Below the pieces are notes generated by a model. It saw only the letters and a program-made list of their open reading frames with translations. It was not told the DNA's origin and searched no databases. This document shows, piece after piece, positions 7,001-50,618 of a stretch of DNA of 64,000 nucleotides. The stretch is from Bactericera cockerelli. Lineage: Eukaryota; Arthropoda; Insecta; Hemiptera; Triozidae. The stretch is taken from NCBI GenBank assembly GCA_024516035.1, contig CM044967.1, forward strand, positions 3,714,859 through 3,778,858. Reading direction: 5' to 3'. Each line of letters starts with the position of its first letter. The first letter of the stretch is position 1. The position numbers were made by a program, and so were the translations under genes.

Positions 7001-10000
7001 TAGATAAAAAGGCATATGTACAGTACAAATAATTACTATAACAATGAACCAAAAAATGTAAACAAAATATACAATTAAAAGGAAAAATAAAAGAAAAATA
7101 TATCTGTACCCTAGAGTTAAAGAGTCGTAACTCCAGTTTTTCAAATTTTACAGGAAAAGCAAAATAAGATTTCAACTTTTTGCATTTGTAAATTCTTCTC
7201 CTTAGTTTATTTCTAAAAACAAAACTGTTTTTTTGTTTTATACTGAATAAAAGGAAATATTATCCTCTAGTAAAATTGCCGTACGATAACAAACTGTCTT
7301 TTACCATGAAAATCCGTAATTTTGGAATTACGATTTTCTTAATTTTATTTTTTTCCTTTTTTCTTATAAGGAATGGATCTGCGGTCTTTTTCCATGTTAC
7401 AAAATAAATCATGGTGAATCCGAATATGAACTTAACTCAATTTCGAAAAAAATTGGAGTTGCGACTCTTTAACTCTAGGGTACAGATATATAGACATATG
7501 TCCTAACTAAAGGGCGGGGTTGCCTATGGCAATCTCTTCAACCCAACCTTCCAACCAAAAATGTAAAAATGTTCCTTCTGTTCATTGGTCAGGTGAACGG
7601 CACCATCTGGACAGAGCTGGACGAGAGCAAACTATTCGCCAGCATGGAGCTGGAGGTGGTGGACAAACTGTTCGGGGCATACCAGAAGAACGGAGTTCCG
7701 GTGAGTATGATGGCTGGGGTTTTTTTTCTTAAATAATAATAATAAATTATATCGCCTTATTTATACTGCCCGATTAGGACTATTAAGCCCCTTTATTCCA
7801 GCAGTAAGCCCAAGACGCATTATTATGTGGTAAAAATCCCAAATGGGAGGATAACTTGTCATGTCCCGGCTGGGTTTCGAACCCGCGACCTCTGGAATCT
7901 CTGGATTCACAGAGTGCCGCCTTTACCACCGAGCTTCTTTTCATTTTTTTGTATACAGAGAGGACCCATCCTAAGCCATTTTTATTTGGCTTCTAAGATG
8001 TTGAAGATCATATTATCATAGGGAATCATGAAAGGGATATTTAGACCTGTATTTGAACGGAGTTCCGGTGAGTATGATGGCTGGATTTTTTTGTATACAG
8101 AGAGGACCCATTCTAAGCCATTTTTATTTGGCTTCTAAGATGTTGAAGATCATATTATCATAGGGAATCATGAAAGGGATATAATTATAGACCTGTATTT
8201 GAACGGAGTTCCGGTGAGTATGATGGCTGGGTTTTTTTTTCTATACAGAGAGGACCCATCCTAAGCCATTTTTATTTGGCTACTAAGATGTTGAAGATCA
8301 TAATATATCATAGGGACTCATGAAAGGGATATTAAGACCTGTATTTGAACGGAGTTCCGGTGAGTATGATGGCTGGGGGTTTTTTTTTGTAAACAGAGAG
8401 GACCCTAAGCCATTTTTATTTGGCTTCTAAGATGTTGAAGATCATATCATAAGGACTCATGAAAGGGATATTTAGACCTGTATTTCCACATCAAGGAGCT
8501 TCAATATTTCTTAAATAAAACCCAAGACTTGTTTTAGGAGAGAAAAAAAATGATCGCACATCGTTCAGAACGAGCCAACTTTTCAACCAGCTGTAGCCAA
8601 GCTGGTTACAACAACAACAACAGCAACAACAATATCAACAAAAAAGACATAATCATAGTTAATCAAGTTGCATTTAAAATTTTTAAAAAGTATTAGATTG
8701 TATGGATTTTTACTTTCTAGGTATTGCTTATAAGCATTAACCTCGCCTGGTGGTTGCCTTTCACTAAGGAGTGTTATTATTATAAGATATCGGTAGAAAG
8801 AATTGTTTTTTTTTTAATTTGTGTCTTATTAAATACTAGCCGTTTGCCCGTGCTTTGCAACGGGACTAAATTTCAAATTTACTAAGGCATGGCCGTACTG
8901 CTGGACAGCAATGCCTTTTTCAACTTTTTATAATTTTTCTGGACAAAGCGATAATAGTTTTGAGGGGGTCAATTCTGAGACATTTTTCGCCATCTCTTAC
9001 CGTTTTGGCTAAACAACTCCGGACAAACAAACAAACATAGGTAGTTAGTCCTTTTTTCTGTTTTAGAGATTTTAGCTAGACTTGAAGATAAATATTTTTT
9101 ACTGTCAGAAGTCGTTCGTTTGAAGTGATTATTCCAAACTTTAGATCTCAGAAAATCTTCTGAAGATTGTATCTGTTTAATGACATTGTAATTAAGTTTT
9201 ACGTTTTAGATAAGTTAGGGACACTTGTAAATTGGATATCTCTCGTCAGCTTATAAATAATAATAATAATAATAATATTTCCTTCCTAGGCGGAAGGCTC
9301 CATGGAAGATCTCACTAAGGCGGGGAAAGTGAACAAAACCAAAAGCTTATCTGTGATAGACGGGAGGAGAGCCCAGAACTGTACCATTCTTCTCTCCAAA
9401 CTCAAGATGACTGACGAAGAAATATCCAAGTAAGTAAATTAAAAGTAAATATTAAACAATTATACATACTCAAGTTTTGTTTCTGTAAAGTAAAGAATAT
9501 TCCTGTTAAAGATGTATTACACTACATGTGACTTATGGGAGTAATCACCTACTCTCAGATGAAGAATAAGAAAAAAATAAAAGAAATAGATAAAATTGAT
9601 AATCAAGTACAAATATGAAAAAAATACTGAATTATAAAAAATACTTCGGTAGAAAAAAACATAATTACAGAAAAGATAATAATAATTTCGTGTCCGTGAG
9701 ATTGGTATTGATACCTAAATCACGGTGGTGAGAGGATTATATGGACGCCCAGATCCAATGTCTAGGCCCCTTTCATGTCCATTGATTCTATTTGGTTTTA
9801 ACGTTCTTGAGGTAAACAGGACGGGGGTATTACCCTCCATTCGCTGGGAATCGTACCAGCTACCCACATATACCTCACCCAGCCTGGGTAGTGCCGGAAG
9901 CGCCAGCCTCACATGTTCGGAAGGAAGAGAATTTTCTGTGCGAAAAGTCTGCTCCAACCGGGAATCGAACTCAGGATCTCTGGACTACGTGCAGTAGTCA

Positions 10001-13000
10001 CAACCGTTACGCCACGGAGGCTGGCTACAGTAAAGATAATTCGACATTATGATTATTATTAAAACCAATCGTTCTTTTTTTTTCGATAGGGCCATTCTGA
10101 GAATGGACAGGGAAAACCAGCTCAACAGTAAATTACAGAAAAGATAATTCGACATTATTATTATTATTATTTTTTGTTATATTTGTGTTAATCACTTTAC
10201 TCAAACTATCACAACTACTCAAACTCGCTTTACAAATTCTACGCTGAAACCGGGACTTGAACCACCGACCTCCAGGTTACAAGTCCGTCGCCTTATCGAT
10301 CAAGCCATTGAAGTCGGTATTATTATTATTAATTTTCAATTCAATTGTTCTCTTTTTTCAACAGGGCCATTCTCAGCATGGACAGGGAAAACCAGCTCCC
10401 CCTGGACAGTTATCCTCTCATTCGTACCACATAGTAATAAGTCCTGGGCTTACTGCTGGAATAATGGGACTTTAATAGTCCTTATCGGGCAGTATCAATA
10501 AGGCGATATTATTATTATTATTATTGATCAGTAGCTTGATCGATAAGGCGGCGGACTTGTAAGCTGGAGGTCGGTGGTTCAAGTCACGGTTTCAGCGTAG
10601 ATTTAATAAAGCGAGTTTGAGTAATTGTGATAGCACGAAAGTGATTAACACAAATATGATAACTTATATTATTATTTTTAAATTCAATTGTTCTCTTTTT
10701 TCACCAGGGCCATTCTCAGCATGGACAGGGAGAACCAGCTCCCCCTGGACATGCTAGAACAGCTGCTCAAGTTCACTCCTAACGCGGAAGAGGCGGCACT
10801 GCTAGAGGAACATAGTGCCGAGACCTTGGCCCGAGCTGATAGGTTCATGTATGAGATATCCAAGTGAGTGCTTGTACTTCTTTTCACATCTGTGGAAAGT
10901 TGTAGTTTGTAATTTTGTAATTGTTTTACAATTGACAAAGTGATATTGTTCATGTATGAGATATCCAAGTGAGTGTTTCTACTTCTTTTCACATCTGTGC
11001 AATGGGTTCATGTATGAGATATCCAAGTGAGTGTCTCTACTTCTTTTCACATCTGTGCAATAGGTTCATGTATGAGATATCCAAGTGAGTGTTTCTTCTC
11101 TTTATTTTTTATTCCAAACTTTAAATATTTTTATTATATTTTTTTTTTACAAAAGTTAAACATTAATGCATCATTCTTCTACTCGTCCCATTCCTGCACC
11201 ATCTTCACATTCAATCCCTCTGATCCTCCGTCTCGCTCCTCTCACTCTCATGGATACTGCTCTCACTATCGAAATTTGTATTTTCACTTTGAGCCAACAT
11301 AGCATTGTACTTCTTTTCACATCTGTGCAAAGTTGTAATATGTAATTTTGTTATTGTTTTACAATTTACAAAGTAATATTGTTCATGTATGAGATATCCA
11401 AGTAAGTGTTTGTGTACTTCTTTTCACATCTGTGCAAAGTTGTAATATGTAATTTTGTAATTGTTTTACAATTTACAAAGTGATATTGTTCATGTATGAG
11501 ATATCCAAGTGAGTGCTTGTACTTCTTTTCACATCCGTGCAAAGTTGTAACCTGTAATTTTGTAATTGTTTTACAATTTACAAAGTGATATTGTTCATGT
11601 ATGAGATATCCAAGTGAGTGTTTGTACTTCTTTTCACATCTGTGCAATTATTGGTATAAGTAGGGCTGTCGGCTACGAAAGCTCTTGATGAGGAAGAAAG
11701 TGCGGGATGAAATGAGGAAGAAATGAGGGGGATGAGGAAGAAAGTGCGGGGTGTTGAATGTGAAGATGGGGCGGGAATGTTATTATTTGAAAGTTGTTAA
11801 ACATTGAAAAAAAATATATATAATAAAATCTTGTTAATAAAAAAATAAAAAAAAAGTTAGACAACCTCTGATATTATATCAAAAAAAAAAAAAAAAAAGC
11901 TCTTTGTCACTGCGACCTTAAATAGATCTTTTGTGACATGCCCCTGTAACTCTAAAAGAGATTAAAGCTATTAATGTAGCTTAAGATTCTTTTAGGACTG
12001 ATTTCGGTAACTTCTTTAGGTGTTAGAATCAGCCTTGAGAAGTGTTTCAGTCGAGCGTGTGAGGCTGCTCCACATTCACAGAGAATGTCTTTTGCTGTCT
12101 CTGGGGCCTCTTTACAGAGACTACATTTTAGGTCTTAAGCAATGTCCATTTGTTCAGACGGTAGTTGAGGCTACAGTGGCCTGTTAAAAAGCCAGTAAGG
12201 ATTCCTCTTTACTCAGACAGAGCATTTCTTTTGCTCTCTCATCTGTGCAAAGTTGTAATATGTAATTTTTTCACTCTTTACAAAGTGATAGTAGTAAAAA
12301 AGTTATCATATTTGTGGTAATCACGATGTGATTTCACAATGACACAATCCCGATTGTGCCAGTTTGTAAGTTTTCTCAGATTATTTTAAGTTTTCTCTTG
12401 TTTAGTCTGTGATTAAATGTTAAACTGTCTCTTCCACCCCAGAATTCCTCACTATGAGCAAAGGCTCAGGTGTCTTCACTACAAGATGCGGTTCTGCTTT
12501 TGGATCAGTGACATAGAGCCAAAGATCAAATCTGTGATGGAGGCATCGCGAGAAGTGACACGGTCGAGACGATTGAGAAAGTTGCTTGAACTGGTGTTGG
12601 CTTTGGGTGAGTAGTAAAACTCCTTCTGTCTGATTTAAAAGTTTCATTCCTTCACTTAGTTTGCTAACAGTAGAGTTCATTTCAGATACCGACAACATTT
12701 TTTTCTGTGTGTTTTACTGATTAAAATAGAGAGATCAGTTGATGGTATGACTATTCAATAGCTGGCCTGTTAAGGAGAGCTAATAAAACTAACTAATTTA
12801 AAATAGAGAGGTTACTTGACGGATTAGGTATTCAGAAGTATTACCTGCTGATGAGAGCAAATAAGCTCGAAACAGCTGTCCAGGTATGTTCTGTTATTCA
12901 TGTACATCTAGTATAACTTCTCACTTTTCTGTTTATACTGATACTGAATTAGGTCGAAACAGCTATCCAGGTATGTTCTGATATCTATCTGCATCTAAGC

Positions 13001-15433
13001 TCTACAAATCCATTTTTTTCTCTTTTAACTGACAGTTTTCTGTTTTCTTTTTTAAGGCAATTACATGAACAAAGGTGCCCGGGGCAATGCAGCTGGGTTT
13101 CGCCTAACTTCCTTGAATAAGCTCGTTGATACCAAGTCTTCATCTTCTCGAGGCGTTACTTTGCTGCATTATTTGGTAAGTTCGGAACTTTACTTTATTA
13201 ACTTTTTATGTTAATGAAATCTGCATTTTATTTCAAACAGAGATTTGCTATGGCCGTCCAAAGAGGCAATGCGGCGGCCATACTTGACACATTTCCTGTC
13301 AACCAAGGGCTCGATGAGGCCTTTGTTCTATGATTTATCAATAATAAATTTCATGAAGTAATTACAAATTTATCTTTGTAAGGTACTTTTTATGGAGTTT
13401 AGGGAAAAGATCTTCCAGACTACCGAATTTCTTTGAATAGTACTATGCCTTTGAGTATAATACGGATTTATATTTATTTAATAAATATGATTGATAAACA
13501 CTTTGGTGAGAGGAAATTCAAGCATACCTTGACTTAGTCAGGTAAAAGTAATCTTAAATAAAAATTAAAAAAAATCTGTCTCATAAAAAAGTTTAGTTGC
13601 ACAATTTGTATAATTTATAATTATGCACCTAGTATTTCTGTTTGGTTATGCAACGCGCAATATAGATTAATGGTGTTACTTTTGAAAGTCTGATGCGACC
13701 TGCAAAAACTCTAATAGCCAATATGTCTCTGAAGTGATCTCTAGCTAATAATGGCCTAAGTGTTGTAACGGAGCGACCTAGATGATAATTTTCTTTCACC
13801 GTTCTGTGATAGGTCACAGAACAAACCCTTTTGAGACTGAAGTGACGTAATTTGTGAAGAACATGGGTCTTTCAAGACCTTTCAAAAAACCAAAGGTTCG
13901 TTCGTTAGAGGTTGATTCTTTCTAAATTAACAGACTGATTATGACCAAAATATGATTATCTAGAATAGACAAGATATGAGAGTTGATCAACCAACTACAT
14001 AAGTTGGTTAGGTTAAGAGGAAAAGCGTTTAACGTAATTACTGTAAATTTCCCAGGTTGAACTGGCTGAAAAACGCTTCAAAGAAGTTCTCAAACTGGAA
14101 GAAGACCTGATTCACGTGAAGGAAGCTTCCAAAGTGTCGATGAAGGAACTCGAAACCGACATGATCCAACTGAGGAACAACCTGAAAGAGGTGTCACGAG
14201 AGATAGAGTTCCAAAGGGTGCAACCACTGGTCCCTGGAGATCGGTTCCTGTTAGTCATGATGGAGTTTCTGTCCTCAGCCACTTGTCGGTTGTCTGAGAT
14301 TGAGGATCTGTTTCAGGATATGAAGACAAGGGTATGGAGCAATGTATCTTATGTGGTCATATAATGTGCACTTTTTCATTTATTTTTTATTTTATTCTCT
14401 TAATATTGTTCTAACGAAGTTTTTTTTTTTTTTTTTAGTTCCACTTACAGAGGACAAAGATAAAAGAAGTAGTGAAAGTTGAAAGTTGAACAATTTTAGT
14501 TTTTCATGTTTCAACTGATATTCACATTCATCTAGGTCCTAGGAGATACAATTTCTCACTTTTCTGTTTTGACTCAAGTATTGAATCACTTAACTAATAC
14601 AACTTCATGACAATTTCGTAATCAGGATAAAATTCGCGAAAGTGGATATGTGCCTGACAAATATCCGTTTTTGGGGCCAAAAAGCCCATACAAAATGTAT
14701 TTGACAACACACAAAAAAATTCAAATTAAAAAAAGTTGACAATATTATGGAGAATTCAATGATCTGATATCTGCGCTGAGAACTGGAGATGTGTTTGTAG
14801 AGGAAAACAAATAAAAAAAATCATATTTTTTTAATAAATACCTTTGATTTTTTGAAAAATTCAAAAATTAATCCACATTTATATGTTTTCCCCAATTTCA
14901 GTTCCACCGGGCGACGCGACAGTTTGGCGAGGACAATCCAATGATTCAACCCGAGGACTTCTTTGTCATCTTTGATACGTTCCTGACAACACTTAACGAG
15001 GCCAAACTGGACAACGAGAATATGAAGAGGAAGAGAGAGGAGGAGGAGAAACGGGCCAGGCAAGATGCAGAGGTAAGTGAGAGGAAAGATAATTATAAGA
15101 GTGAGAACATTAATACAGGTAAAAAAAGAGCCTTAATACTGGTTAAGATTTCCAACTGAAAAGAGAGAAGACAGCCACGACTGACCGACCAATTTTTTAC
15201 CTACTTTTCAGATGAAGAAAAGAACAGTGGATCGAAAGCAGGCGGCCATCAAAGAGAACGGGGTGGTCACCAGCAACGGCACAGTCAAGGGAGAATTCGA
15301 TGATCTGATATCTGCGCTGAGGACTGGAGATGTGTTTGGAGAAGACAGCTACGCCAAGATCAAGAGATCCAGGCGGTCCAGACATTCACCGTCTTCTGCA
15401 AGGGGGGATAGCAGGGAAAGGGTCATCAAATAG
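960..15433 (+). CDS. DAAM: DAAM formin, 3' part (13 exons, 723 residues visible)
   Basis: Diaphanous-related formin of the DAAM family, which nucleates and elongates unbranched actin filaments downstream of Rho GTPases and Dishevelled. Exons: 960-1077, 1964-2106, 4462-4578, 5293-5490, 5837-6076, 7593-7700, 9290-9429, 10708-10863, 12443-12606, 13057-13175, 14056-14331, 14902-15072, 15212-15433. All have AG/GT borders and matching phases; the sum is 2172 nt, an exact codon multiple. Visible residues 1-87 are the end of the FH3 region ([34 protein letters not shown]). Residues 88-192 are coiled coil. About 193-245 is a short proline-rich FH1. About 257-640 is FH2, with FNWVKLP at the start, a conserved Ile in QNCTILL near 341 that matches the actin-contact Ile of other FH2 domains, and GNYMN near 462-466. 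The DAD is [13 protein letters not shown] from about 677, followed by a basic KRSRRSRH segment. [10 protein letters not shown] and the DAD form favour DAAM over Dia. The 5' exons are outside the window. Confidence 0.95.
1440..1540 (-). repeat. SINE-E-like remnant with 5S-like stretch
   Basis: Contains TCTTAACTTCAGTGATTCGATGG-type sequence that resembles the 5S-like segment of 45552-45655 and 63090-63130. Degenerate. Confidence 0.35.
1738..1932 (+). mobile_element. LINE-type 3' end with A-rich tail
   Basis: GGTGGAAGAGATTGCC, then AGGCAATAACCCCGCCC, a T-rich stretch and (AATA)n. This is a layout seen at the 3' ends of insect non-LTR elements. A minus-strand relative is at about 7495-7550. Ends just before the acceptor of the DAAM exon at 1964. 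Class is inferred. Confidence 0.45.
1964..2106 (+). CDS. DAAM: DAAM exon: [10 protein letters not shown] region
   Basis: Acceptor TTTCAG, donor GTAATT. Encodes [18 protein letters not shown] and then [12 protein letters not shown]. Phase 1 in, phase 0 out. The region links the FH3 armadillo repeats to the coiled coil. Confidence 0.93.
2295..2378. repeat. Near-perfect 84-bp hairpin
   Basis: Arms of about 40 bp read from GTATATGTAAT to ATTACATATA, with AACTAGAATTC / GAATCCTAGTT inside and CTTTAAAG around the centre. Loop is almost nil. Probably a tiny MITE in a DAAM intron. Confidence 0.7.
2396..2605. mobile_element. Degenerate TIR element
   Basis: Left end GCTGGGATACCACAGAG and the reverse complement of the right end (CTGCCGGGATTCCACTGAG) match with gaps. 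GTTGCG/CGCAAC-type internal inverted motifs also occur. Non-coding. Confidence 0.4.
2658..3145 (+). repeat. Tandem duplication: one copy filled by a MITE, one empty
   Basis: The unit runs from ATAAGT.TCAA.AACCCAG to AATCTATCCCTTTAG (about 95 bp). Copy one is 2658-3050 with the MITE inside; copy two is 3051-3145 without it. Confidence 0.85.
2695..2981. mobile_element. hAT-like MITE (287 bp) with 8-bp TSD
   Basis: Right end TTATTGCCGACCCCTG reads inverted as CAGGGGTCGGCAATAA and matches the left CCTCGGTCGGCAATTA. The right flank is CTCTAGAG (2982-2989); the left has CTCTAGAG at 2680-2687 followed by an extra TCTAGAG. An 8-bp TSD and CAGNGGTC ends are typical of hAT. A tandem copy of the flank at 3051-3145 lacks the insert. 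Confidence 0.75.
3240..3275. repeat. CT microsatellite
   Basis: (CT)n run inside a DAAM intron. Confidence 0.9.
3923..4358. mobile_element. hAT-like MITE (436 bp) with exact 8-bp TSD
   Basis: TIRs are CTGCGGTCGGCAACCT on the left and, inverted, CAGCGGTCGGCAACCT on the right, with one mismatch. The TSD GTCTAAGA is at 3915-3922 and 4359-4366. The interior has a G12 run and no ORF of note. Inserted about 100 bp upstream of a DAAM exon. Confidence 0.9.
4400..4469 (+). repeat. Duplicated splice-acceptor segment before DAAM exon 4462
   Basis: CATTTATTTCATAAACAG followed by GAGGA occurs at 4382-4404 and again at 4444-4466. The true exon follows the second. After the first AG the frame reads into TAA within nine codons. 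Confidence 0.85.
4462..4578 (+). CDS. DAAM: DAAM exon: coiled coil, part 1
   Basis: 39 codons, phase 0 on both sides, starting [15 protein letters not shown] and ending VKTQEN before GTGAGT. Heptad-rich and highly charged. A duplicated copy of its acceptor lies 62 bp upstream at 4398-4399, but that copy leads into an early stop. Confidence 0.94.
4604..4770 (-). repeat. Repeat G, single copy
   Basis: Reverse complement of the family at 35140-35305, 46280-46497 and 49400-49755 (GGGTGGCGTCATCGTGAACG, GGGCCCCCAGAAC, CTACTCCCTGTTTATAG). It starts 25 bp after a DAAM donor. Confidence 0.85.
5293..5490 (+). CDS. DAAM: DAAM exon: coiled coil, part 2
   Basis: 66 codons, phase 0 on both sides, starting [20 protein letters not shown] and ending SGSVPDDTK before GTGACA. 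The donor is weaker than its neighbours (no G at +5). Confidence 0.93.
5640..5705 (-). repeat. SINE-A tail fragment
   Basis: AGTGGAAGGTAGCCACCAGG, then GTTAATGCTCAAAGCATTTT as in the full copies at 44517 and 48333. Confidence 0.75.
5837..6076 (+). CDS. DAAM: DAAM exon: FH1 and start of FH2
   Basis: 80 codons. Proline runs, including one of eight Pro, form the FH1 profilin-binding region; it is short for a formin. The exon then runs into [14 protein letters not shown], the FH2 lasso with its conserved Trp. Local G+C is much higher than in the flanking introns. Confidence 0.95.
6236..6372 (+). repeat. SINE-B, full-length-like
   Basis: tRNA-like head AGTAGCTTGATCGATAAGGC, B box GGTGGTTCAAGTCCC, body AGTTGTGATATCACGAAAGT and end ATGATAACTT. 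Intronic, same strand as DAAM. Confidence 0.9.
7097..7491. mobile_element. TIR element with about 45-bp arms
   Basis: TATATCTGTACCCTAGAG and on through GTCGTAACTCCAG (7097-7142) is inverted at 7446-7491 (TTGGAGTTGCGACTC to GGGTACAGATATA). About 300 bp lie between. Sits in the intron before the first full FH2 exon. Confidence 0.7.
7495..7550 (-). repeat. LINE-type 3' end fragment
   Basis: AAGGGCGGGGTTGCCTATGG then CAATCTCTTC is the reverse complement of the segment at 1745-1795. Confidence 0.5.
7593..7700 (+). CDS. DAAM: DAAM exon: FH2 lasso/linker
   Basis: 36 codons, starting [20 protein letters not shown] and ending YQKNGVP before [15 protein letters not shown] matches the second conserved Trp of the FH2 lasso. 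Its last 13 bases and the donor recur at three intronic sites downstream. Confidence 0.95.
7689..8492 (+). repeat. 146-bp tandem array that copies an exon end and donor
   Basis: GAACGGAGTTCCG followed by GTGAGTATGATGGCTGG is the exon end at 7688-7717. It recurs with decoy donors at 8068, 8214 and 8360, spaced exactly 146 bp. The first gap is 367 bp because a SINE-C of about 221 bp (7728-7937) sits in unit one. Confidence 0.92.
7728..7937 (-). repeat. SINE-C
   Basis: CGCCTTATTTATACTGCCCG to GTTTCGAACCCGCGACCTC and CCGCCTTTACCACCGAGCT; the tRNA-like head is on the minus strand. Inserted in unit one of the 146-bp array. Confidence 0.9.
8733..8782 (+). repeat. SINE-A 3' fragment
   Basis: GCATTAACCTCGCCTGGTGG then a (TTA)n tail. 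Confidence 0.7.
8835..9048 (+). mobile_element. ACTAGC-type element, solo
   Basis: Starts ACTAGCCGTTTGCCCGTG and ends near GGACAAACAAACAAACATAG. It shares GGCATGGCCG with the copies at 40661 and 61481. Class uncertain (LINE-end or MITE-like). Confidence 0.5.
9290..9429 (+). CDS. DAAM: DAAM exon: FH2 actin-contact helix
   Basis: Phase 0 in, phase 2 out. Starts [13 protein letters not shown] and includes [20 protein letters not shown]. The Ile of NCTILL corresponds by family knowledge to the conserved FH2 actin-binding Ile. Confidence 0.95.
9722..10024 (-). repeat. SINE-E with tRNA-like head
   Basis: Minus-strand head near 9950-10024 (GTGGCGTAACGGTTGTGAC; B box GAGTTCGATTCCCGG). The body contains CCTCACCCAGCCTGGGT and GACGGGGGTATTACCCTCC. 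Confidence 0.85.
10090..10128 (+). pseudogene. Partial copy of DAAM exon 10708, copy 1
   Basis: GGCCATTCTGAGAATGGACA then GGGAAAACCAGCTCAACAG, preceded by a T-rich tract and AG. 39 bp resemble the start of the true exon. Confidence 0.85.
10175..10318 (-). repeat. SINE-B
   Basis: GTTATATTTGTGTTAATCAC to GACCTCCAGGTTACAAGTCC, ending at GATCAAGCCATTGAAG. Confidence 0.88.
10365..10409 (+). pseudogene. Partial copy of DAAM exon 10708, copy 2
   Basis: 45 bp, GGCCATTCTCAGCATGGACA through CCCCTGGACAG, with a duplicated TTTTTTCAACAG acceptor. Then it is cut by a SINE-C fragment. Confidence 0.9.
10410..10522 (+). repeat. SINE-C 3' fragment
   Basis: GGGCTTACTGCTGGAATAAT, CTTATCGGGCAGTATCAAT and GGCGATATTATTATTATT, the plus-strand view of the SINE-C tail. 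Confidence 0.85.
10530..10670 (+). repeat. SINE-B
   Basis: AGTAGCTTGATCGATAAGGC, GGTGGTTCAAGTCACGG, ATGATAACTT. Its 3' end is about 37 bp from the true acceptor of DAAM exon 10708. Confidence 0.9.
10708..10863 (+). CDS. DAAM: DAAM exon: FH2 knob/coiled-coil part
   Basis: Phase 2 in (AA+G gives Lys), phase 2 out. Encodes [20 protein letters not shown] and then [20 protein letters not shown]. Partial copies of its 5' end lie at 10090-10128 and 10365-10409, and six partial copies of its 3' end lie between 10949 and 11620. This exon is the only complete one. Confidence 0.94.
10840..11640 (+). repeat. Tandem array copying exon end and donor (six decoys)
   Basis: TTCATGTATGAGATATCCAA then GTGAGT marks the true donor at 10864 and decoys at 10969, 11027, 11085, 11402 (GTAAGT), 11509 and 11614. 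Spacing is about 105-107 bp or 58 bp. 11100-11305 interrupts the array with a T-rich, then TC-rich stretch. Confidence 0.93.
11681..11898 (+). mobile_element. Retroposed 3' tail with poly(A), nested
   Basis: GATGAGGAAGAAAGTGCGGG to an A18 run. AAGCTCTT stands on both sides (about 11673-11680 and 11898-11905), which I read as a target-site duplication. The sequence resembles 54490-54600 (AAGATGGTGCGGGAATG). Confidence 0.6.
11898..12240 (-). pseudogene. LINE ORF2 C-terminal fragment
   Basis: The minus strand reads [14 protein letters not shown] and, after a frameshift, [20 protein letters not shown]. This is the Cys-rich tail at the end of I/Jockey/R1-type LINE polyproteins. It carries a stop and a frameshift. 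A second copy of its downstream end is at 50525-50580 on the other strand. Confidence 0.75.
12443..12606 (+). CDS. DAAM: DAAM exon: FH2 core
   Basis: Begins [17 protein letters not shown] and ends [11 protein letters not shown]; phase 2 in, phase 1 out (G+GC gives the Gly of GNYMN). Acceptor CACCCCAG, donor GTGAGT. Confidence 0.95.
12837..12990 (+). repeat. Copy of the window-start 144-bp family
   Basis: TATTACCTGCTGATGAGAGC, AGCTCGAAACAGCTGTCCAGG, then GTGTACATC-type sequence, in the opposite sense to 1-392. Confidence 0.75.
13057..13175 (+). CDS. DAAM: DAAM exon: GNYMN motif
   Basis: Encodes [20 protein letters not shown] and then [19 protein letters not shown]. This is the most conserved FH2 block (GNYMN, G.A.GF, DTKS, LLHYL). 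Ends at a GTAAGT donor. Confidence 0.96.
13241..13333 (+). pseudogene. LINE reverse-transcriptase C-terminal fragment
   Basis: Encodes [20 protein letters not shown] and ends EAFVL plus [15 protein letters not shown] matches the C-terminal tail of many LINE-type polymerases and resembles AIQRGNSSSIRGTLP at 15838. It follows TTTATTTCAAACAG, which looks like a splice acceptor inside the DAAM intron. Confidence 0.65.
14056..14331 (+). CDS. DAAM: DAAM exon: FH2 C-terminal helices
   Basis: 92 codons, the largest exon seen. Starts [18 protein letters not shown] and ends [12 protein letters not shown]. Mostly helical and charged, as expected for the FH2 coiled-coil and post subdomains. Confidence 0.95.
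14902..15072 (+). CDS. DAAM: DAAM exon: end of FH2 and basic coiled coil
   Basis: 57 codons. Contains [19 protein letters not shown] and ends [18 protein letters not shown], the charged helix between FH2 and DAD typical of DAAM. Confidence 0.95.
15212..15433 (+). CDS. DAAM: DAAM last exon: DAD and stop
   Basis: 73 codons plus [19 protein letters not shown] is the diaphanous autoregulatory core, which binds the N-terminal DID to hold the formin inactive. The [10 protein letters not shown] basic patch strengthens that contact in the family. Ends DSRERVIK. Confidence 0.95.
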   Translation: MKKRTVDRKQAAIKENGVVTSNGTVKGEFDDLISALRTGDVFGEDSYAKIKRSRRSRHSPSSARGDSRERVIK

Positions 15434-16704: not shown

Positions 16705-16913
16705 AATATAATAATAATATTGCCTTATTTATACTGCCCGATTAGGACTATTAAGTCCCATTATTCCAGCAGTAAGCCCAAGACGTATTATTTTGTGGTA
16801 AAAATCCCAAACGGGAGGAAAACTTGTCATGTCCCGGCTGGGTTTCGAACCCACGACCTCTGGAACTTCTGGATTCACAGAGTGCCGCCTTTACCACTGA
16901 GCTACCGGGACAG
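16705..16913 (-). repeat. SINE-C
   Basis: TGCCTTATTTATACTGCCCG to TTTACCACTGAGCTACCGGG; B box GTTTCGAACCCACGACC. Well preserved. Confidence 0.92.
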
Positions 16914-19859: not shown

Positions 19860-20248
19860 ATGAAAACAATAATCCACGGGTTGGTTTTCATCAGCTTGTG
19901 CCAACACCTGACAGCAATGTCGGTCAAAAGAAACAGAACCTCACGAAGAGTATTAAGACTGAAAACTACATCAACCACCGACCAAAATGCCACAACTCAC
20001 AGTGATGCGACAAACACATCGAAGAACACTACAATCTACTCAATGTATGAACCAAACAATAAGGAATTCACTCAAGTAGCAAATAATTCAAGAGATCTTG
20101 CTGTACAAAGTTGGTACACGACCTATCAAAAGCGATATGTACCCAACACTAGATTACATGAAGTTGTCCTGAGGACACCTTTCGTTTTATCTTATGATCA
20201 ACGGGATACTCTGGCGAGAGTTGTGAAGAAGCTGTGGTGGAATTGTAG
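19860..20248 (+). CDS. Zinc-finger gene 1, exon 1
   Basis: Signal-like N-terminus through VVKKLWWNC; donor AG|GTGAGT, phase 2. The reading frame would stop two bases after the donor, which supports the splice. Confidence 0.75.
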
Positions 20249-21889
20249 GTGAGTACTGCAATGTATTGATTAATCTCAATTGGTAACTAAAGTTAAAATA
20301 ATTTTCCGAAATCACTTACCGTTTTACCAAAACCACAAATAGTCAAAAACGGTCAATTCCCGCCACTGGCGACTCAACGGTAATAGCTGTTCGCAAAAAA
20401 AGTAAGATCTCATTTGTTTTGAGCACCTAGAAACAATGGGTTTGATAAGCCACAACCACCGTGTGTGACGAAAAAAATTAAAATGAAAAAATATATGAAT
20501 GATTTGTGGTGAACCCAGAGCTTCTTCACATTTTTTGTTTGTGGCACATCTTGTGCTGGAAATTCCAAAGGCTTGACAATAAAATTAATAATGTCTCAAT
20601 AACATCGTTCATGAATGATAATGTTAATATTATAGGTATCACATCATCCTTGTCAGGCCAAAAACCAAAAACTCATTAATGTTGTTAATGGGGTTTCTTT
20701 ATTTATTTTATGCATACACACGCAATAATACTATTGCATTTACGTGTATGATAGGGTATACCTACAATATTATGATAAAATATACATACTTTAGTATTAC
20801 ATAATACATTAGGTAAAAGGGTTAGTTAGGAAGGATATCCAGCTGTAAAATGAAGAAAAGTTAGTGCCAGAACCAAATAATCTCAACCATGTTTCAAATA
20901 ATCTCAACCATGTCTCTACTTTTATACTTACAACTTTTGCCCAAAACAAATCAACAAAAATCTCACTCCATTCCAGGTTACTCTCCCGATTCATGAGGGA
21001 GCAAAGCGTCACCACCTTCACACCGTCTAGTCTAGAAAAACTTCGGATAAAGCAAATTAGAGAGCAGCTAAAACCTGAGATGCAAAAAGAGCTGTATTAC
21101 TGTGATCAGTGCAACAAATCCTTCAAGCTTTTTCTGGGTAAGAGCGGCGACACTTCGATTTTCTTTTAGAGATAAAGACTCTTTAAATGGTTGATTCCAT
21201 GTCAAATCATTTTAAAAAAATGTTGTTGTCTAAGAAGCTTGTCACGGTGGGAAACGTTGCTGTGGTCTTAGAGAAGCTGAGAATAGCTCAATGTGGGTTA
21301 TTCATCAGTATGAATAGAAGAGTGAGAAGTATTGCATATTGCATTGCATATGCGTAAGTTCCATGTCTATTGACTTTCATGATACCTAAGCCGTATTTTT
21401 CTTTCTAACCAAAGTTAACTAAACTGGAATAAAATGAACTAAAGTGGAAGCAAGTCACTTTTCTATTGGAAGAGGAAATTTCGTTAACCAAAATGGAAGT
21501 AGAAAATTCTTGCTTCCAGTTCTTTTACAGGTTAAGTCCATTGTTTATCTTCAAAAGTACCGAAACGCATTTTTCTTTCACGAATGTGGTGAAGCTGACC
21601 TTGGAATAAATGGAAATATTTGGATATATAGAACCTGGAATTTTTTTTTTTTATCCAAAAGAAAAATACCCCTCTACCCCTTTAGATACTCTAGAATCAC
21701 CAAAATTCTATTTCTAGAGCAAGTTCTAAACTTTTTTCCACAGGAATTTGGAATCACATGAAGAGTATACACAAGATTGTTGTGAAACCCACCAGGATTG
21801 TATCGGGACAGATCCGAGGAACGTACAACATGAAAAATAGGTATACGACTTTGAAAGATTACTACGAGGCGCATGATGATCGAAGGTAG
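19860..21889 (+). CDS. Putative secreted single C2H2 zinc-finger protein, 231 aa
   Basis: Three exons: 19860-20248, 20977-21137, 21744-21889 (join phases 2 and 1; 696 nt including TAG). Residues 1-20 look like a signal peptide (MKTIIHGLVFISLCQHLTA). Residues 22-60 are Ser/Thr/Asn-rich with several N-X-S/T sites. A basic, helical middle follows (SSLEKLRIKQIREQLKPEMQ). The only zinc finger is C172-x2-C175-x12-H188-x4-H193, with core FLGIWNHMKSIH. The tail is short and basic, ending YYEAHDDRR. The start ATG is the first in frame before the hydrophobic segment. A paralogue lies 1.5 kb downstream. I do not recognise the family. A signal peptide and a single C2H2 finger rarely go together, so the role (secreted factor, or nuclear protein with a false signal) is open. 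Confidence 0.75.
20255..20975 (+). other. Intron 1 of zinc-finger gene 1
   Basis: A/T-rich. Contains a short segment (TTTGTGGTGAACCCAGAGC near 20500) resembling 18790-18830, and a tandem AATAATCTCAACCATGTTTC pair near 20875-20910. No other feature seen. Confidence 0.55.
20977..21137 (+). CDS. Zinc-finger gene 1, exon 2
   Basis: Acceptor ATTCCAG; AG+G makes Arg, then LLSRFMREQ to CDQCNKSFKLFL. Donor G|GTAAGA, phase 1, so the intron splits the finger between its Cys and His halves. Confidence 0.78.
21140..21743 (+). other. Intron 2 of zinc-finger gene 1
   Basis: Includes GCCGTATTTTTCTTTCTAAC near 21390, shared with 57035. No other gene signal. Confidence 0.5.
21744..21889 (+). CDS. Zinc-finger gene 1, exon 3
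   Basis: Acceptor TTCCACAG; G+GA makes Gly, then IWNHMKSIHKIVVKPTR, ending DDRR plus TAG. Joining it to exon 2 restores FLGIWNHM, matching FLGLWKHM in the second gene. Confidence 0.8.
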
Positions 21890-21892
21890 TAG

Positions 21893-22525
21893 CTTTAAGA
21901 GTATCAGAAAGTGGACATTCTTCAGGAAAATTCTGCGTGGACATTCTTCAAGAATATCAGAAGGTGGAAATTCTTCAAGAATATCAGAAGATAGACATTC
22001 TTCAAAAATAGCAGGAGGTGGACATTCTTCAAGAATATCAGAAGGTGAAAATTCTTCAAGAATAACAGAAGGTGGAAATTCTTCAAGAATATCAGAAGGT
22101 AGATATTCTTCAAGAATATCAGAAGGTGGAAATTCTTCAAGAATGTCAGAAAATAGATATTCTTCAAGAATATCAGAAGGTGGAAATTCTTCAAGAATAT
22201 CAGAAGGTAGATATTCTTCAAGAATATCAGAAGGTGGAAATTCTTCAAGAATATCAGAAGGTAGATATTCTTCAAGAATATCAGAAGGTGGAAATTCTTC
22301 AAGAATATCAGAAGATAGATTATTCTTCAAGTATATCAGAAGGTGGAAATTCTTCAAGAATATCAGAAAGTGAAAATTCTTCAAGAATAAAAGAAGGTGA
22401 AAATTCTTCAAGAATAACAGAAGGTGGAAATTCTTCAAGAATATCAGAAGATAGATATTCTTCAAGAATATCAGAAGGTGGAAATTCTTCAAGAATATCA
22501 GAAGATAGAACTATTTTTTCTAATT
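21893..22525 (+). repeat. 27-bp minisatellite, about 22 units
   Basis: Unit TTCTTCAAGAATATCAGAAG plus seven variable bases (GTGGAAA or GTAGATA alternate, giving a 54-bp higher order). It begins a few bases after the zinc-finger stop. As 27 is a multiple of three and the unit is poor in stops, several frames on both strands stay open (ISEGGNSSR, ILQEYQKVE; on minus ILEEFPPSD). I treat these as repeat by-products in a likely 3' UTR, but translation is not excluded. Confidence 0.93.
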
Positions 22526-22625
22526 TGAGGAGATATAGATTCACACTTGGAAACTATCACTTCATACAAATTCAAATTATTTACATCAGATTTTTGGTTG
22601 AATTTTATTCTATATCGATGTAATA

Positions 22626-23444
22626 ATCATATGAATTTCAGGGTTTAAAATTTTCGATTAACTGGGATTGAAAACCACGTTATTCTGTTTATTTATTTAC
22701 CAGTGAAACTTTAAGTTCGACTGAAGATATTATACTTAGCTGTCACATGTTACCTACCTACTAGATTAAGATAATTACCTAATAGCTAAAATGGAAATGT
22801 TTTAACAGCTTTAAGAGGTTCTTTTATTAATTTTATATTCCGTAGTTTAGTAAATTCTAGGTATTGTCACTGAAAACTTGCCTTATTCGCTAAAACTAAT
22901 AATTATGAATTGATAAGAAATTATTGTACTACTTTCGGTCATCACTGTTTCTTAGTATTGAGCTACGGTTGAATGCATTATTGTTTGTTAAGTGAAATAA
23001 CAAAGTCATCATTATTTTACTAAATTGAAGCATTTATTTAATATTTTGTACTTTAAAAAAGTCAGTTCTGGTGAATTGTATACATAAAATGTAAAGTGAA
23101 TAAATAAATAAATCGTCAGCATAAAATAAACACTTATTTTTAGTAAATTCACTGATAAGTCTTTTATTTATTTATTTATTTATTTTAAGTTACAGACCAT
23201 CAGTTACTGATACGAAAATAAATATTAAACAAAATTCATAATTTTTATTTACAGTAATAAGATACACAATGAGTTTATCTTACTGTAAGTTTATCATTAC
23301 AAACAAATTGATTTTTCAATAGAAAGACTTGATCAAGAGTTAATACTATCAGAATTATCTTCCAACATGATAAAAATATCATAAAACATGATAACAATAT
23401 TCAGCCGGATCATACATTCTTAATTTTCAATAGTATCAATAACG
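22626..23444. other. Gap between the two zinc-finger genes
   Basis: A/T-rich, with (AATA)n at 23097-23112 (possible poly(A) signal for the upstream gene) and (TTTA)n at 23163-23190. No coding signal. Confidence 0.55.
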
Positions 23445-23897
23445 TTGAATTTTCTGATGTTCAACACATTTTCTTTCTCAATAATCCTAATGACAGTACT
23501 AGAAATAAATGCACTCGACTATAACTTCCGAAAAGAGGGCGAACTGAAACAGTCTTTCGGCAAGCTGAACATATTGGTGAAGAACATGCGAATTATTTTG
23601 CGGACTTTGATGGAATACAAAAAGGACAAATACTTGAAGCAGCACAAACTGCCCTTGGACGAAGTAAACAACCGAGTTCCTGACGATATGAAGATCATTC
23701 CACAGCTGCGCCGAGTGCCGTTTCAATGCTCGGAGTGTAATTTCAATGCCACCGCCTTCCTTGGGCTCTGGAAACATATGAAAAATGCACACAAAATTGA
23801 CATCAGCAAAAAGTGGCTGAATTTGATAGTCGCGAAAACCACTACTGATATGGTCATGGATATGGAGAGATATACGATGAAAAATGATAAGTGTTGA
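23445..23897 (+). CDS. Putative secreted single C2H2 zinc-finger protein, 150 aa, intronless
   Basis: One uninterrupted exon. Residues 1-23 form a hydrophobic signal-like segment (MNFLMFNTFSFSIILMTVLE, then INA). The middle is basic and helical (LNILVKNMRIILRTLMEYKK). The single finger is C95-x2-C98-x12-H111-x4-H116 with core AFLGLWKHMKNAHKID. The C-terminus is helical, ending MKNDKC. Spacing and core match the upstream gene, so the two are probably paralogues. This one lacks the intron that splits the finger in its neighbour, which suggests intron loss or a retrocopy. Poly(A) signals AATAAA lie at 23986 and 24012. I do not recognise the family; finger binding to DNA is not shown. Confidence 0.72.
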   Translation: MNFLMFNTFSFSIILMTVLEINALDYNFRKEGELKQSFGKLNILVKNMRIILRTLMEYKKDKYLKQHKLPLDEVNNRVPDDMKIIPQLRRVPFQCSECNFNATAFLGLWKHMKNAHKIDISKKWLNLIVAKTTTDMVMDMERYTMKNDKC

Positions 23898-23985: not shown

Positions 23986-24017
23986 AATAAAAGCAGTCGT
24001 TAGACTTTGTAAATAAA
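23986..24017 (+). promoter_or_regulatory. Two AATAAA poly(A) signals after zinc-finger gene 2
   Basis: AATAAA at 23986-23991 and 24012-24017, 90-115 bp past the stop. Confidence 0.55.
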
Positions 24018-29953: not shown

Positions 29954-31790
29954 TTTAGAGAGTTGTATGGGGTTTTTCATACGGTTGATACGGTGGGTGT
30001 TACCATAGATGTAGGACCAGACCAGGATAGATGTGTCGGACTTATCAGTCCTCATCAGATAACCTTTTGGTAGCTCTTGATATACAATGAGATCATTAAA
30101 CTTTATCATAGGTTCTTACAATGTTGGTACTATTTATTCGTCACTTTTACCCTCTATTTCTCTCTGAGTATGAGTAGAAAACTTCCACAGTAAAATATTT
30201 AAAAAAAATTTAACACAGTCGTAATTCGAACCTGGGTCTCCAGTATATTAATCAGTGTCAATAGGCATACCCTCTGACTAACAAAAGTTAAATATAGAAA
30301 TGATTTGTTCAGTTCTAAAATAGTGTAACAATACCCTCAACCCTCATCTCGAGTCAACAATCGAACCCTGTAGAATACCTTACCCAGAACATAATGAACC
30401 CTATAATAGTTATAGACCCATCTGTCATTTTTGAACTTGCTTCAAAAAGAATAAAAAAGATTACGTCTAAATCGCTCTCTCATTTTGTACTCTTTTAATT
30501 CCTGATAACGGTATTGCTCTATTTACATACAGATTGAGACGCGATCGAAAGCATTGTATGTATCCTTTTTTTTCTTTCGTTGTTTGATGTGCAGCTCATC
30601 ATCCTTTGTAACTTCGTTAAATAGGCTTAAATATTTCATGGTGGGGGATTGTATTAGCTAATGGAGCTTTTGAATGACATTTTAGATATTGGCATTTTGT
30701 GTGAGGAATAATTAGGAACCTGTGAGGTTCCCATGTCACGAACACATTTCTTTTGGTATTCAATTTTGATTTCAATTGTAACTTATAGTTTAGCAACTAC
30801 ATAATGAGAGACTGCATGGTGATAAAGAGAGTTAGATCTAACCATAATGGCTGGAAATTGTTGGTAATTTTTGTTCTTCGACCACAGTTGGACCATTTTA
30901 TTGGTGGTCGAGTTATGAGGCGCTAGTCTGGTAATCCAAGGAAGTAGTTTGAACTTTTTCCCCATAATATTTTAGAATTTGACGACATTTAATAATGTCA
31001 CCGGAAACAACTGCTTGAATAAAAAGACTCGTTAGCTCTACTCAAACACTCATAAAAATACTTAATACATTATTATTACACTGTCTAATGCAAAAAAAAG
31101 TATTTGAGGGTAGTAAAACTAAGGAAAAAAAAATATACTGAAAACATGTAACTCAATGCTATTAAATTTACTCTATTTCTACAAAACAAGATTACTAATT
31201 TTACCATTTCTTTAACATACATACATGAAACCAATCCTCAAAAATTACCTCTCCCTTTTTGCTGAAATTTTGTTAAGTAAGAGGTCAATGGAGATGATCT
31301 CTCGCTCTCTCTCCCTTTTATCTGCCAGATATCAAGTACAAGATCACGTGCTGAAACTCTATATTGACGTAAAAACATATTTCGTCGATTTTCTCCACAA
31401 CAAAGTGAAAAAGATTTTTTAATACTTTTTTTTACGTTTTGTTTTGAAGTTTTCGATGAAAACAAGGTTCGTCGGAAAGCGCACTTTGAGCTTGTTGAAT
31501 GCAGTGAATCTGACGGGACCTTTGAAGGAAAAGTTCTGCTAATGAGATGATACGTCAAGTACCGATACCTAATCTGTGCACCACGTGGCTTCCACAAGTC
31601 TTTCCATCAGTCAGTCAAAATGTATAAGTGAGAAGTTCTAGTAGATGTAAAAAGTTACATATAGGATAGCTAGGTACTATGCTGTACAGGTTGTTCTCAT
31701 AGACTGAGCAACCAACCTGATGAACCTGAGTTACTCACTATCTCACTAACTGCAATTTTTTATAAGTAGTCCGCATGAAATAATATGAAG
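29954..31790. other. Intergenic; tRNA-like scrap and shared 57-bp piece
   Basis: 30225-30290 has CGTAATTCGAACCTGGGTC, a tRNA-like B box on minus. 30834-30894 is shared, inverted, with the insert in SINE-C 27972-28030. ORFs near 31225-31597 on both strands overlap and have no motif I recognise. Confidence 0.45.
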
Positions 31791-47247: not shown

Positions 47248-47460
47248 TGCACTGGTAGTCAAGTGGTTAAGGCTCTAGTCTGGTAATCCAGGTAGCGTAG
47301 GGATCCGTTGGTTCGAATCCCACCCAGGGCATGAATTTTTCCTCATTAATTTAAGTATGTGACCACATAGTAATAAGACTCTGAGGGTTAGGTGGTAGAT
47401 AATGCTTTACCTCGCCTCGCCTGGTGGTTACCTTCCACTAAAGAGTATTATTATTATTAA
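47248..47460 (+). repeat. SINE-A, full-length
   Basis: GTGCACTGGTAGTCAAGTGG, GGTTCGAATCCCACCCAGG, GACTCTGAGGGTTAGGTGG, CTTCCACTAAAGAGTATTA with (TTA)n tail. Confidence 0.93.
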
Positions 47461-48332: not shown

Positions 48333-48553
48333 CAATAATAATAATAATACTCTTTAGTGGGAGGTAACCACCAGGCGAGGTTAATGCTTAAAGTATTTTC
48401 TACCACCTTACCCTCAGAGTCTTATTATTAAGTATGTGATCACAAACTCAAATTAATGAGGAAAAATTCATGCCCTGGGTGGGATTCGAACCAACGGATC
48501 CCTACGCTGCCTGGATTACCAGACTAGCGCGTTAACCACTTGACTACCAGTGC
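48333..48553 (-). repeat. SINE-A, full-length
   Basis: AGTGGGAGGTAACCACCAGG, GGGATTCGAACCAACGGATC, CGTTAACCACTTGACTACC, AGTGCAC. Confidence 0.92.
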
Positions 48554-48556
48554 ACA

Positions 48557-50580: not shown

Positions 50581-50618
50581 ATACCAATACCAAGTTAAGA
50601 TAATATACAAACTTTTTA

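What the first reader, a model, noticed from the sequence alone, without database searches (positions are those of the whole stretch)
19860..23897. Neighbouring genes for signal-peptide-bearing, single C2H2 finger proteins
Both proteins start with a signal-like hydrophobic segment and carry just one finger, C-x2-C-x12-H-x4-H, with an identical FLG(I/L)WxHMKxxHK core. C2H2 proteins are normally nuclear with several fingers and TGEKP linkers; neither trait is present. The family looks lineage-specific. A secreted role (for example a saliva, venom-gland or reproductive protein) is speculation.
Basis: partly seen in the sequence, partly recalled or inferred. Interest (0 to 1): 0.78.

Follow-up and report, generated by a model that had tools for sequence, protein, structure and literature searches.

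The report
Psyllid pair of secreted one-finger proteins
Two neighbouring genes in what is most likely a psyllid (jumping plant louse) genome encode small proteins that look built for export from the cell, yet carry a single motif of the kind usually found in DNA-binding proteins; relatives occur in other psyllids, and their job is unknown.

Summary
Gene 1 (three exons, 19860-21889, 231 aa) and gene 2 (one exon, 23457-23897, 146 aa) each have a hydrophobic N-terminus and one C-x2-C-x12-H-x4-H motif with an FLG[IL]WxHM core. All homologues with a named source are from Psyllidae. In the 565 Mb genome the exact finger signature occurs twice, in these genes.

Sequence supports export. In gene 2 a divergent hydrophobic leader ends at A/S just before an invariant DYNF; the next 66 residues are 79-89% identical to the window. 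In gene 1 the fast-changing linker after the leader holds 29 N-glycosylation sequons in seven sequences, 11.4 expected from shuffles.

The finger is C2H2-like but divergent: printed Pfam scores stay below cut-off, and neither AlphaFold model draws a finger. By recalled numbering, the DNA-reading helix positions hold Ala/Leu, Leu, Gly, Asn/Lys, suggesting protein contact. Against this, gene 2 keeps a minimal NLS-like K[KR]xK in all records.

Best reading: a psyllid-restricted pair of secreted, finger-bearing proteins. Tissue, partner and zinc binding are unknown. New variant of a known kind; moderately interesting.

The parts
19860..20248 (+). Gene 1 exon 1: hydrophobic leader (about residues 1-19), basic sequon-rich linker, conserved PNTRL...WWNC block
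20977..21137 (+). Gene 1 exon 2: conserved block (predicted helical, low confidence) and first half of the finger (YYCDQCNKSFKLFLG)
21744..21889 (+). Gene 1 exon 3: second half of the finger (IWNHMKSIHK), conserved C-terminal tail, stop codon
23457..23897 (+). Gene 2, single coding exon, 146 aa, stop included: leader about residues 1-19, conserved DYNF block, finger 89-112, variable tail
23727..23792 (+). Gene 2 finger, C91 to H112 (C-x2-C-x12-H-x4-H), with an N-A-T sequon inside it that is present in all six sequences compared
23986..24017 (+). Two AATAAA polyadenylation-like signals after gene 2 (23986 and 24012)
   Evidence: sequence match only

Best explanation
These are two members of a small psyllid-restricted family of secreted proteins. 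A cleaved signal peptide sends each into the endoplasmic reticulum. Gene 1 then carries a basic, probably N-glycosylated, fast-changing linker; both continue with a conserved, probably helical block and one C2H2-type finger. Shown by sequence: gene structure, homologues, conserved place of the leader, sequon enrichment, invariant Cys and His. Inferred: that the leader is cleaved and the protein leaves the cell, that the two Cys and two His hold a zinc ion, and that the finger does not read DNA but presents a hydrophobic helix face (F-L-x-x-W) to the helical block or to a partner, as protein-binding fingers do. Because the core is strongly conserved among the psyllids compared, an endogenous extracellular role (haemolymph, matrix, signalling or symbiosis) is judged likelier than an arms-race effector.
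For: (1) Gene 2: leaders share 6-9 of 20 residues with the window (3 of 10 for the truncated P0003), residues 21-86 share 52-59 of 66, and residues 87-116 (finger) 25-28 of 30. A or S stands two residues before DYNF in the window, P0002, P0003 and P0004, and three before in P0001 and P0005, in keeping with the small-residue rule at a cleavage site (rule recalled). (2) Gene 1: the linker holds 29 N-x-S/T sequons in seven sequences against 11.4 expected from shuffling each linker; 21 against 8.6, reached by 0 of 50,000 shuffles, after leaving out P0008 and the first ten linker residues with the shared first sequon. The part after the linker holds 1 in the window and 0 in the six others, of which four have only 36 further residues. 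(3) The finger ligands are kept in all 10 sequences that reach it, the two window proteins included; gene 1 has all seven hallmark positions of a C2H2 finger (hallmark recalled). (4) Of 18 Pfam families weakly matched by the nine aligned proteins, 11 are named C2H2 finger models, and where residues are printed these cover the motif. The only other own-genome match of gene 2 at E 0.001 or better is an ordinary C2H2 exon (E 2.0e-4; frame). (5) The exact signature occurs 2 times in 565 Mb, reversed control 0. (6) Products that span the introns of gene 1 are recorded for C. melanoneura, C. willieti and D. citri (P0007, P0008, P0006).
Against: No signal-peptide predictor, expression or proteome data were available. 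The positive charges just after the gene 1 leader (KRNRTSRR) could favour a reverse membrane anchor with the finger in the cytosol. Gene 2 keeps K[KR]xK (KKDK, KRDK or KRTK) in all six sequences, which fits the minimal one-part nuclear import consensus (recalled); it lies in the predicted helix and such short matches are common in basic proteins, but it speaks for a nuclear role. No Pfam model reaches its cut-off in the rows that print one (best for PF00096 15.8 bits, cut-off 25.2). Both AlphaFold models are poor overall (mean pLDDT 46.7 and 48.4) and neither draws a beta hairpin at the finger; the gene 1 model runs one helix through 145-189, including both Cys, at block means of 59-75, which is its better part. 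Gene 2 has Ala where C2H2 fingers have Phe, and its N-A-T sequon lies inside the finger, an odd place for a glycan. The linkers are related sequences, so the shuffle count overstates significance; single P-values run up to 0.19. P0003 has no full leader.
Confidence: 0.58

Rival explanations
1. Salivary effectors: secreted into the plant with saliva, then acting inside plant cells, possibly in the nucleus through the finger, as the C2H2 effectors MoHTR1 and MoHTR2 of the rice blast fungus are reported to do.
For: Psyllids secrete signal-peptide proteins in saliva (PMC12695838, passages seen). MoHTR1/2 are C2H2 effectors that go to the host nucleus (PMC10669146, passages seen). Both window proteins are basic (net +21 for gene 1, +10 for gene 2 after residue 20). 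Gene 2 keeps an NLS-like K[KR]xK in all six sequences.
Against: No 'zinc finger' or 'C2H2' in the main text of three D. citri effector or salivary papers (their supplements were not readable). Effectors often diverge fast (recalled), but the core here is conserved. By recalled numbering, finger helix positions -1, 2, 3, 6 hold L/A, L, G, N/K, poor for reading DNA. In gene 1 the basic clusters lie in different places or are absent.
Confidence: 0.17
2. Bacteriocyte-secreted proteins that act on or reach the symbiont Carsonella, analogous to the novel secreted proteins of aphid bacteriocytes.
For: Psyllids depend on Carsonella in bacteriocytes (PMC12203342, passage seen). Aphids evolved novel secreted proteins for symbiosis (PMC3574423, title and start of abstract seen). 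A lineage-restricted, conserved secreted pair fits.
Against: The best known aphid ones are cysteine-rich (recalled); gene 2 has only the two motif cysteines conserved. No expression data.
Confidence: 0.12
3. Ordinary intracellular zinc-finger proteins: the hydrophobic start is a signal anchor or non-functional, and the finger works in cytosol or nucleus.
For: Finger hallmark residues; basic composition; NLS-like K[KR]xK in all six gene 2 sequences; positive charges after the gene 1 leader; 1 of 65 other ATG-started frames in the window has as hydrophobic a start.
Against: The leader is kept at the same place in 9 of 12 homologue records by their own start and 10 with the inner start of P0011, although its letters change; sequon enrichment in the gene 1 linker; one finger without neighbours.
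Confidence: 0.14
4. The motif is not a zinc finger: a helical secreted protein whose CxxC pair forms a disulfide and whose histidines sit on one helix.
For: AlphaFold draws helix through the motif in gene 1 at block means of 59-75; the secretory pathway is oxidising (recalled); Pfam is below cut-off.
Against: The models rest on six-sequence alignments and are poor overall; all four ligands and the usual hydrophobic positions of gene 1 are kept; 11 of 18 weakly matched Pfam families are C2H2 models.
Confidence: 0.25

Closest known systems
Classical C2H2 zinc-finger proteins (PF00096)
   Same: C-x2-C-x12-H-x4-H with the aromatic and aliphatic core positions in gene 1; the only other own-genome match of gene 2 at E 0.001 or better is an ordinary C2H2 exon.
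   Different: One finger only, no TGEKP linker, hydrophobic leader, hydrophobic or glycine residues at most DNA-reading positions (recalled numbering), Pfam score under the cut-off.
MoHTR1 and MoHTR2, C2H2 effectors of Magnaporthe oryzae (PMC10669146, passages seen)
   Same: Small effectors (198 and 110 aa) with a C2H2 finger that leave the cell that makes them.
   Different: Fungal; reported to act on host promoters. No sequence comparison was made, and no plant target or nuclear delivery is known for the psyllid proteins.
Novel secreted proteins of aphid bacteriocytes (PMC3574423, title and start of abstract seen)
   Same: Lineage-specific secreted proteins of a sap-feeding insect.
   Different: No finger mentioned in what was seen; tissue unknown here; cysteine content differs (recalled for the aphid side). 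No sequence comparison was made.

Membership tests
C2H2 zinc finger (Pfam PF00096 and relatives) | Two Cys and two His at C-x2-4-C-x12-H-x3-5-H | tested here: met
   All 10 sequences that reach the motif, window included
C2H2 zinc finger (Pfam PF00096 and relatives) | Hydrophobic core: [FY]-x-C, F four after the second Cys, L/I three before the first His (recalled) | tested here: inconclusive
   Met in gene 1; gene 2 has Ala in place of Phe in all six sequences
C2H2 zinc finger (Pfam PF00096 and relatives) | Score above the curated cut-off | tested here: not met
   Gene 1: 15.8 bits against 25.2 for PF00096; none of the 16 rows (table A) that print a cut-off reaches it. For eight of nine members no bit scores are printed (best E among all 0.00092). 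So it is called C2H2-like, not filed as a Pfam member
C2H2 zinc finger (Pfam PF00096 and relatives) | Beta-beta-alpha fold | tested here: inconclusive
   Poor models show no hairpin; gene 1 model has helix there
C2H2 zinc finger (Pfam PF00096 and relatives) | Binds zinc | not testable with these tools
   Needs purified protein
Multi-finger nuclear C2H2 transcription factors | Several fingers joined by TGEKP-like linkers | tested here: not met
   One motif per protein where reached; no further one seen in the 12 homologue records, of which 4 are exon 1 pieces
Secreted proteins with a cleaved signal peptide | N-terminal hydrophobic core then small residues near the cleavage site | tested here: met
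   By hydropathy and by eye, not by a trained predictor; some gene 1 orthologues have Thr there, less typical; P0003 and P0006 lack it
Secreted proteins with a cleaved signal peptide | Protein found outside the cell | not testable with these tools
   Needs proteomics or expression
C2H2 nuclear effectors (MoHTR type) | Nuclear import signal | tested here: inconclusive
   K[KR]xK in all six gene 2 sequences; no cluster at one place in gene 1
C2H2 nuclear effectors (MoHTR type) | Enters host nucleus and acts on host promoters | not testable with these tools
   Needs experiment

The most novel reading that the evidence does not exclude
The pair is a founding example of extracellular C2H2 fingers in insects: a DNA-binding fold exapted as a zinc-stabilised protein-binding ligand, sent out by psyllids either to their Carsonella bacteriocytes or into the plant, and kept at least since Psyllinae and Diaphorininae parted.
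Probability: 0.15. Interest if true: 0.75.

Novelty: new variant of a known kind. Interest (0 to 1): 0.42.

Why it matters
C2H2 fingers are a very common DNA-binding module in animals (recalled); naturally secreted single-finger proteins seem to be rarely described (in the held library the phrase 'secreted zinc finger protein' gave one paper, on an engineered delivery system). If export and zinc binding are confirmed, this shows the module working outside the nucleus. Psyllids carry the agents of citrus greening and zebra chip (PMC10470031 and PMC12203342, listings), so a conserved psyllid-only secreted pair is worth placing in a tissue. It also shows how a probably mis-annotated start (D. citri P0006) can hide a protein from effector screens that require a signal peptide.

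Tried and rejected
Third family member in the genome: protein searches found none (two places, the second an ordinary C2H2 exon with a stop inside the match, frame of 101 aa with two fingers; besides the window, 12 matches at E 0.108 or worse). The signature pattern found only these two genes; a diverged or intron-split member could escape it.

Homologues in prokaryote genome contigs: 38 stretches matched a pattern, none encodes a relative, as expected for an insect gene. The profile search of 1575 candidates gave 12 proteins, only one new (P0012, E 3.0), which is gene 1 exon 1 by its letters.

Common origin of the whole two proteins: the profile comparison aligns only the finger (36 columns, probability 96%, 31% identity). 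The longer match in the multiple alignment is suggestive and not claimed as shown.

Known structures: the best profile hit, 8qae (E 1.9e-6, no stretch passing on its own; a coiled-coil design as I recall), probably reflects helix composition; zinc fingers follow from E 0.014. Single-sequence searches gave zinc fingers at E 0.019 and 0.088 at best. Foldseek on the poor gene 1 model gave 0 of 78 matches at E 0.001 or better. All set aside.

Zinc-finger proteins in planthopper saliva (PMC5935387, one passage of a table seen): as I read the row, no signal peptide; no comparison made. Two psyllid papers with zinc-finger words were looked into by passages: large sets of zinc-finger genes respond to Liberibacter in potato psyllid gut (PMC10275445) and a zinc finger protein class in D. 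citri (PMC10470031); neither passage identifies our genes and the supplement of the first was not readable.

Species: 565.0 Mb is near the 567 Mbp upper end given for earlier psyllid genomes (PMC12203342, passages), but I did not identify the species; that it is a psyllid is inferred from its nearest relatives.

For that the best reading went from 0.60 to 0.58, the effector rival from 0.15 to 0.17 and the intracellular rival from 0.12 to 0.14.
Full report
What is there. The window lies in a 565 Mb genome of 1032 contigs (G000:C13). Gene 1 has exons 19860-20248, 20977-21137 and 21744-21889 with GT...AG introns and codes for 231 aa; gene 2 is a single exon 23457-23897 coding for 146 aa. The coordinates of the finding are those of the first ATG and the last stop. 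Each ATG is the first in frame after an upstream stop. AATAAA signals follow gene 2 at 23986 and 24012.

Who has it. Three searches of 5.8 billion proteins were used. Gene 2 gave 5 proteins from 9 candidates, gene 1 gave 6 from 145, and a joint profile gave 12 from 1575, one of them new. The named sources are Diaphorina citri (P0005, P0006), Cacopsylla melanoneura (P0002, P0007) and Cyamophila willieti (P0008), all Psyllidae, the first of Diaphorininae and the other two of Psyllinae. P0001 shares its first 120 residues with D. citri P0005, and P0010 ends with residues 1-99 of D. citri P0006, so both are taken as D. citri. P0003, P0004, P0009, P0011 and P0012 are unnamed. That the UniRef entries of C. 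melanoneura come from transcripts is recalled, not shown. The search needs shared five-residue words and similar lengths, so more distant relatives could be missed. P0004 (gene 2) and P0011 (gene 1 exon 1) are both listed with a longest contig of 4108 bases, which suggests that the pair is adjacent in that species too; the contig itself was not read. Against general linkage, the D. citri locus tags (M8J75_001825 and M8J75_002813) are far apart in number and their listed longest contigs differ (19,899,490 and 20,226,363).

Copy number. Gene 2 matches itself and one ordinary C2H2 exon on C2 (E 2.0e-4; frame with two fingers); gene 1 itself is not among its matches at E 0.001. Gene 1 finds its three exons, gene 2 at E 6.7e-4, and then 12 matches at 0.108 or worse. 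The degenerate signature (L, I, V, M or F)-W-x-H-M-(K or R)-x-x-H-K-(L, I, V, M or F) occurs 2 times in the genome, in these two genes, against 0 for the reversed control.

Evidence for export. Leaders of gene 2 share 6-9 of 20 residues with the window (3 of 10 in P0003), whereas residues 21-86 share 52-59 of 66 and residues 87-116 share 25-28 of 30; the tail again varies (3 of 23 to 15 of 29). A hydrophobic segment that keeps its character but not its letters, ending at A or S just before an invariant DYNF, is the pattern of a cleaved signal peptide. Peak hydropathy of the leader: window 2.37 and 2.32; P0001, P0002, P0004, P0005, P0007, P0008, P0009, P0010 and P0012 score 2.23-3.22; P0011 scores 0.11 from its first Met and 2.77 from the conserved one; P0003 scores 1.0 and P0006 0.3. 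So 9 of 12 records have it from their own start, 10 of 12 with the inner start of P0011. P0006 is the D. citri annotation that begins 46 residues later than P0010. As a control, 1 of the 65 other ATG-started frames in the window scores as high as either gene (the first count, included the two genes themselves).

Glycosylation sites. In gene 1 the stretch between leader and PNTRL changes fast (13 of 51, 15 of 62 and 17 of 69 aligned residues identical to P0006, P0008 and P0007) but stays rich in N-x-S/T: 5, 4, 3, 5, 5, 3 and 4 sequons in the window, P0007, P0008, P0009, P0010, P0011 and P0012, in all 29 against 11.4 expected from shuffling each linker. Single P-values run from 0.003 to 0.19. 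Without P0008, a near relative of P0007, and without the first ten linker residues that hold the shared first sequon, 21 remain against 8.6, reached by 0 of 50,000 shuffles. The sequences share ancestry, so that number is not a true probability; still, P0007 and P0008 have every linker Asn in a sequon. This is what one expects of a linker that passes through the endoplasmic reticulum and not of a nuclear protein. P0006 was left out of both counts because its start is truncated. Gene 2 has N-A-T inside the finger in all six sequences (P0003 has a second sequon in its tail); I cannot explain it.

The finger. Both Cys, both His and FLG[IL]WxHM are kept in the two window proteins and in all 8 records that reach the motif; P0009-P0012 end before it. 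Gene 1 has the usual core (YxC...F...I..H, except that P0008 reads YHC); gene 2 has Ala for Phe. No Pfam model reaches its cut-off in the rows that print one (and table A); 11 of the 18 families weakly matched are named C2H2 models. AlphaFold models built on six sequences are poor (46.7 and 48.4) and draw no hairpin; in the gene 1 model the motif is inside a helix 145-189 at block means of 59-75. I read it as a divergent C2H2 finger, with a real chance that it is something else. Numbering by the usual scheme (recalled), helix positions -1, 2, 3 and 6 hold L, L, G, N in gene 1 and A, L, G, K in gene 2 of the window, while positions 1, 2 and 5 are F, L and W in both. That is a hydrophobic face suited to protein contact and poorly suited to reading bases. 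In P0007 and P0008 position -1 is Q instead of L.

Against export. Gene 2 keeps K[KR]xK (KKDK, KRDK, KRTK) within its conserved block in all six sequences, which fits the minimal one-part nuclear import consensus (recalled). Gene 1 has basic clusters in its linker or tail in most records but at different places, and none in P0006 and P0010. The charges after the gene 1 leader could also favour a reverse anchor. These keep the intracellular and host-nucleus rivals open.

How it may work. Signal peptide to the endoplasmic reticulum; a glycosylated basic linker in gene 1; then a conserved, probably helical block with a finger that packs on it or on a partner. The conserved core points to a constant partner inside the insect rather than to an arms race. 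Saliva, bacteriome and reproductive tissue remain open. The main texts of three D. citri effector or salivary papers contain no 'zinc finger' or 'C2H2' (term searches); their supplements could not be read.

Literature. Ten searches of the open library: psyllid + salivary + effector + zinc finger (20 papers listed; titles and starts of abstracts seen, two opened by passages); B. cockerelli genome assembly (7); C2H2 + signal peptide + effector + host nucleus and further terms (8); psyllid + bacteriome + signal peptide + lineage-specific (3); D. citri saliva proteome and effector (42, 12 listed); 'secreted zinc finger protein' (1, an engineered delivery system); psyllid + orphan genes + secreted (10); psyllid + C2H2 zinc finger + gene family expansion (2); C2H2-type with signal peptide, N-glycosylation, insect and secreted protein (0); C2H2 + seminal fluid + signal peptide + insect (4). 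None of what was seen describes this family. The library lacks most subscription journals.

Verdict. A real, conserved gene pair, restricted to psyllids as far as these searches reach, and most likely secreted.

Noticed in passing
21893-22504: A 27-base minisatellite of 22.7 copies starts with three bases between it and the gene 1 stop codon; it leaves long frames open on both strands (172, 185 and 278 codons), probably non-coding, as orthologues end near the same stop.
   Followed up: partly
5708-15433 +: Upstream neighbour is a formin gene: the frame 14047-14361 matches the FH2 domain (E 2e-16). Frames at 5708 and 14872 look by eye like its proline-rich and C-terminal parts, but Pfam gave nothing for them.
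   Followed up: partly
31238-31606 -: Weak match to the Vps8 central TPR (E 0.0026, 17.7 bits, cut-off 27): possible downstream neighbour on the other strand.
   Followed up: no
47248-47332 + and 48470-48554 -: Two inverted tRNA-Thr predictions 1.1 kb apart, and a third tRNA match just above its gathering score at 16830-16911 -; may be tRNA-derived SINEs.
   Followed up: no
50604-51008 and 51192-51560: Two frames share a long identical stretch, and two TGTCTGTG arrays lie 672 bases apart: looks like a recent local duplication.
   Followed up: no
G000:C3 10721175-10727014 and C484 95576-101419: Three weak zinc-finger matches on C3 recur, inverted, on C484 with nearly equal scores: C484 may be an unpurged haplotype copy.
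   Followed up: no
D. citri P0006 (M8J75_002813): Annotated start lies 46 residues later than that of P0010, which carries a signal-peptide-like start in the same exon.
   Followed up: yes
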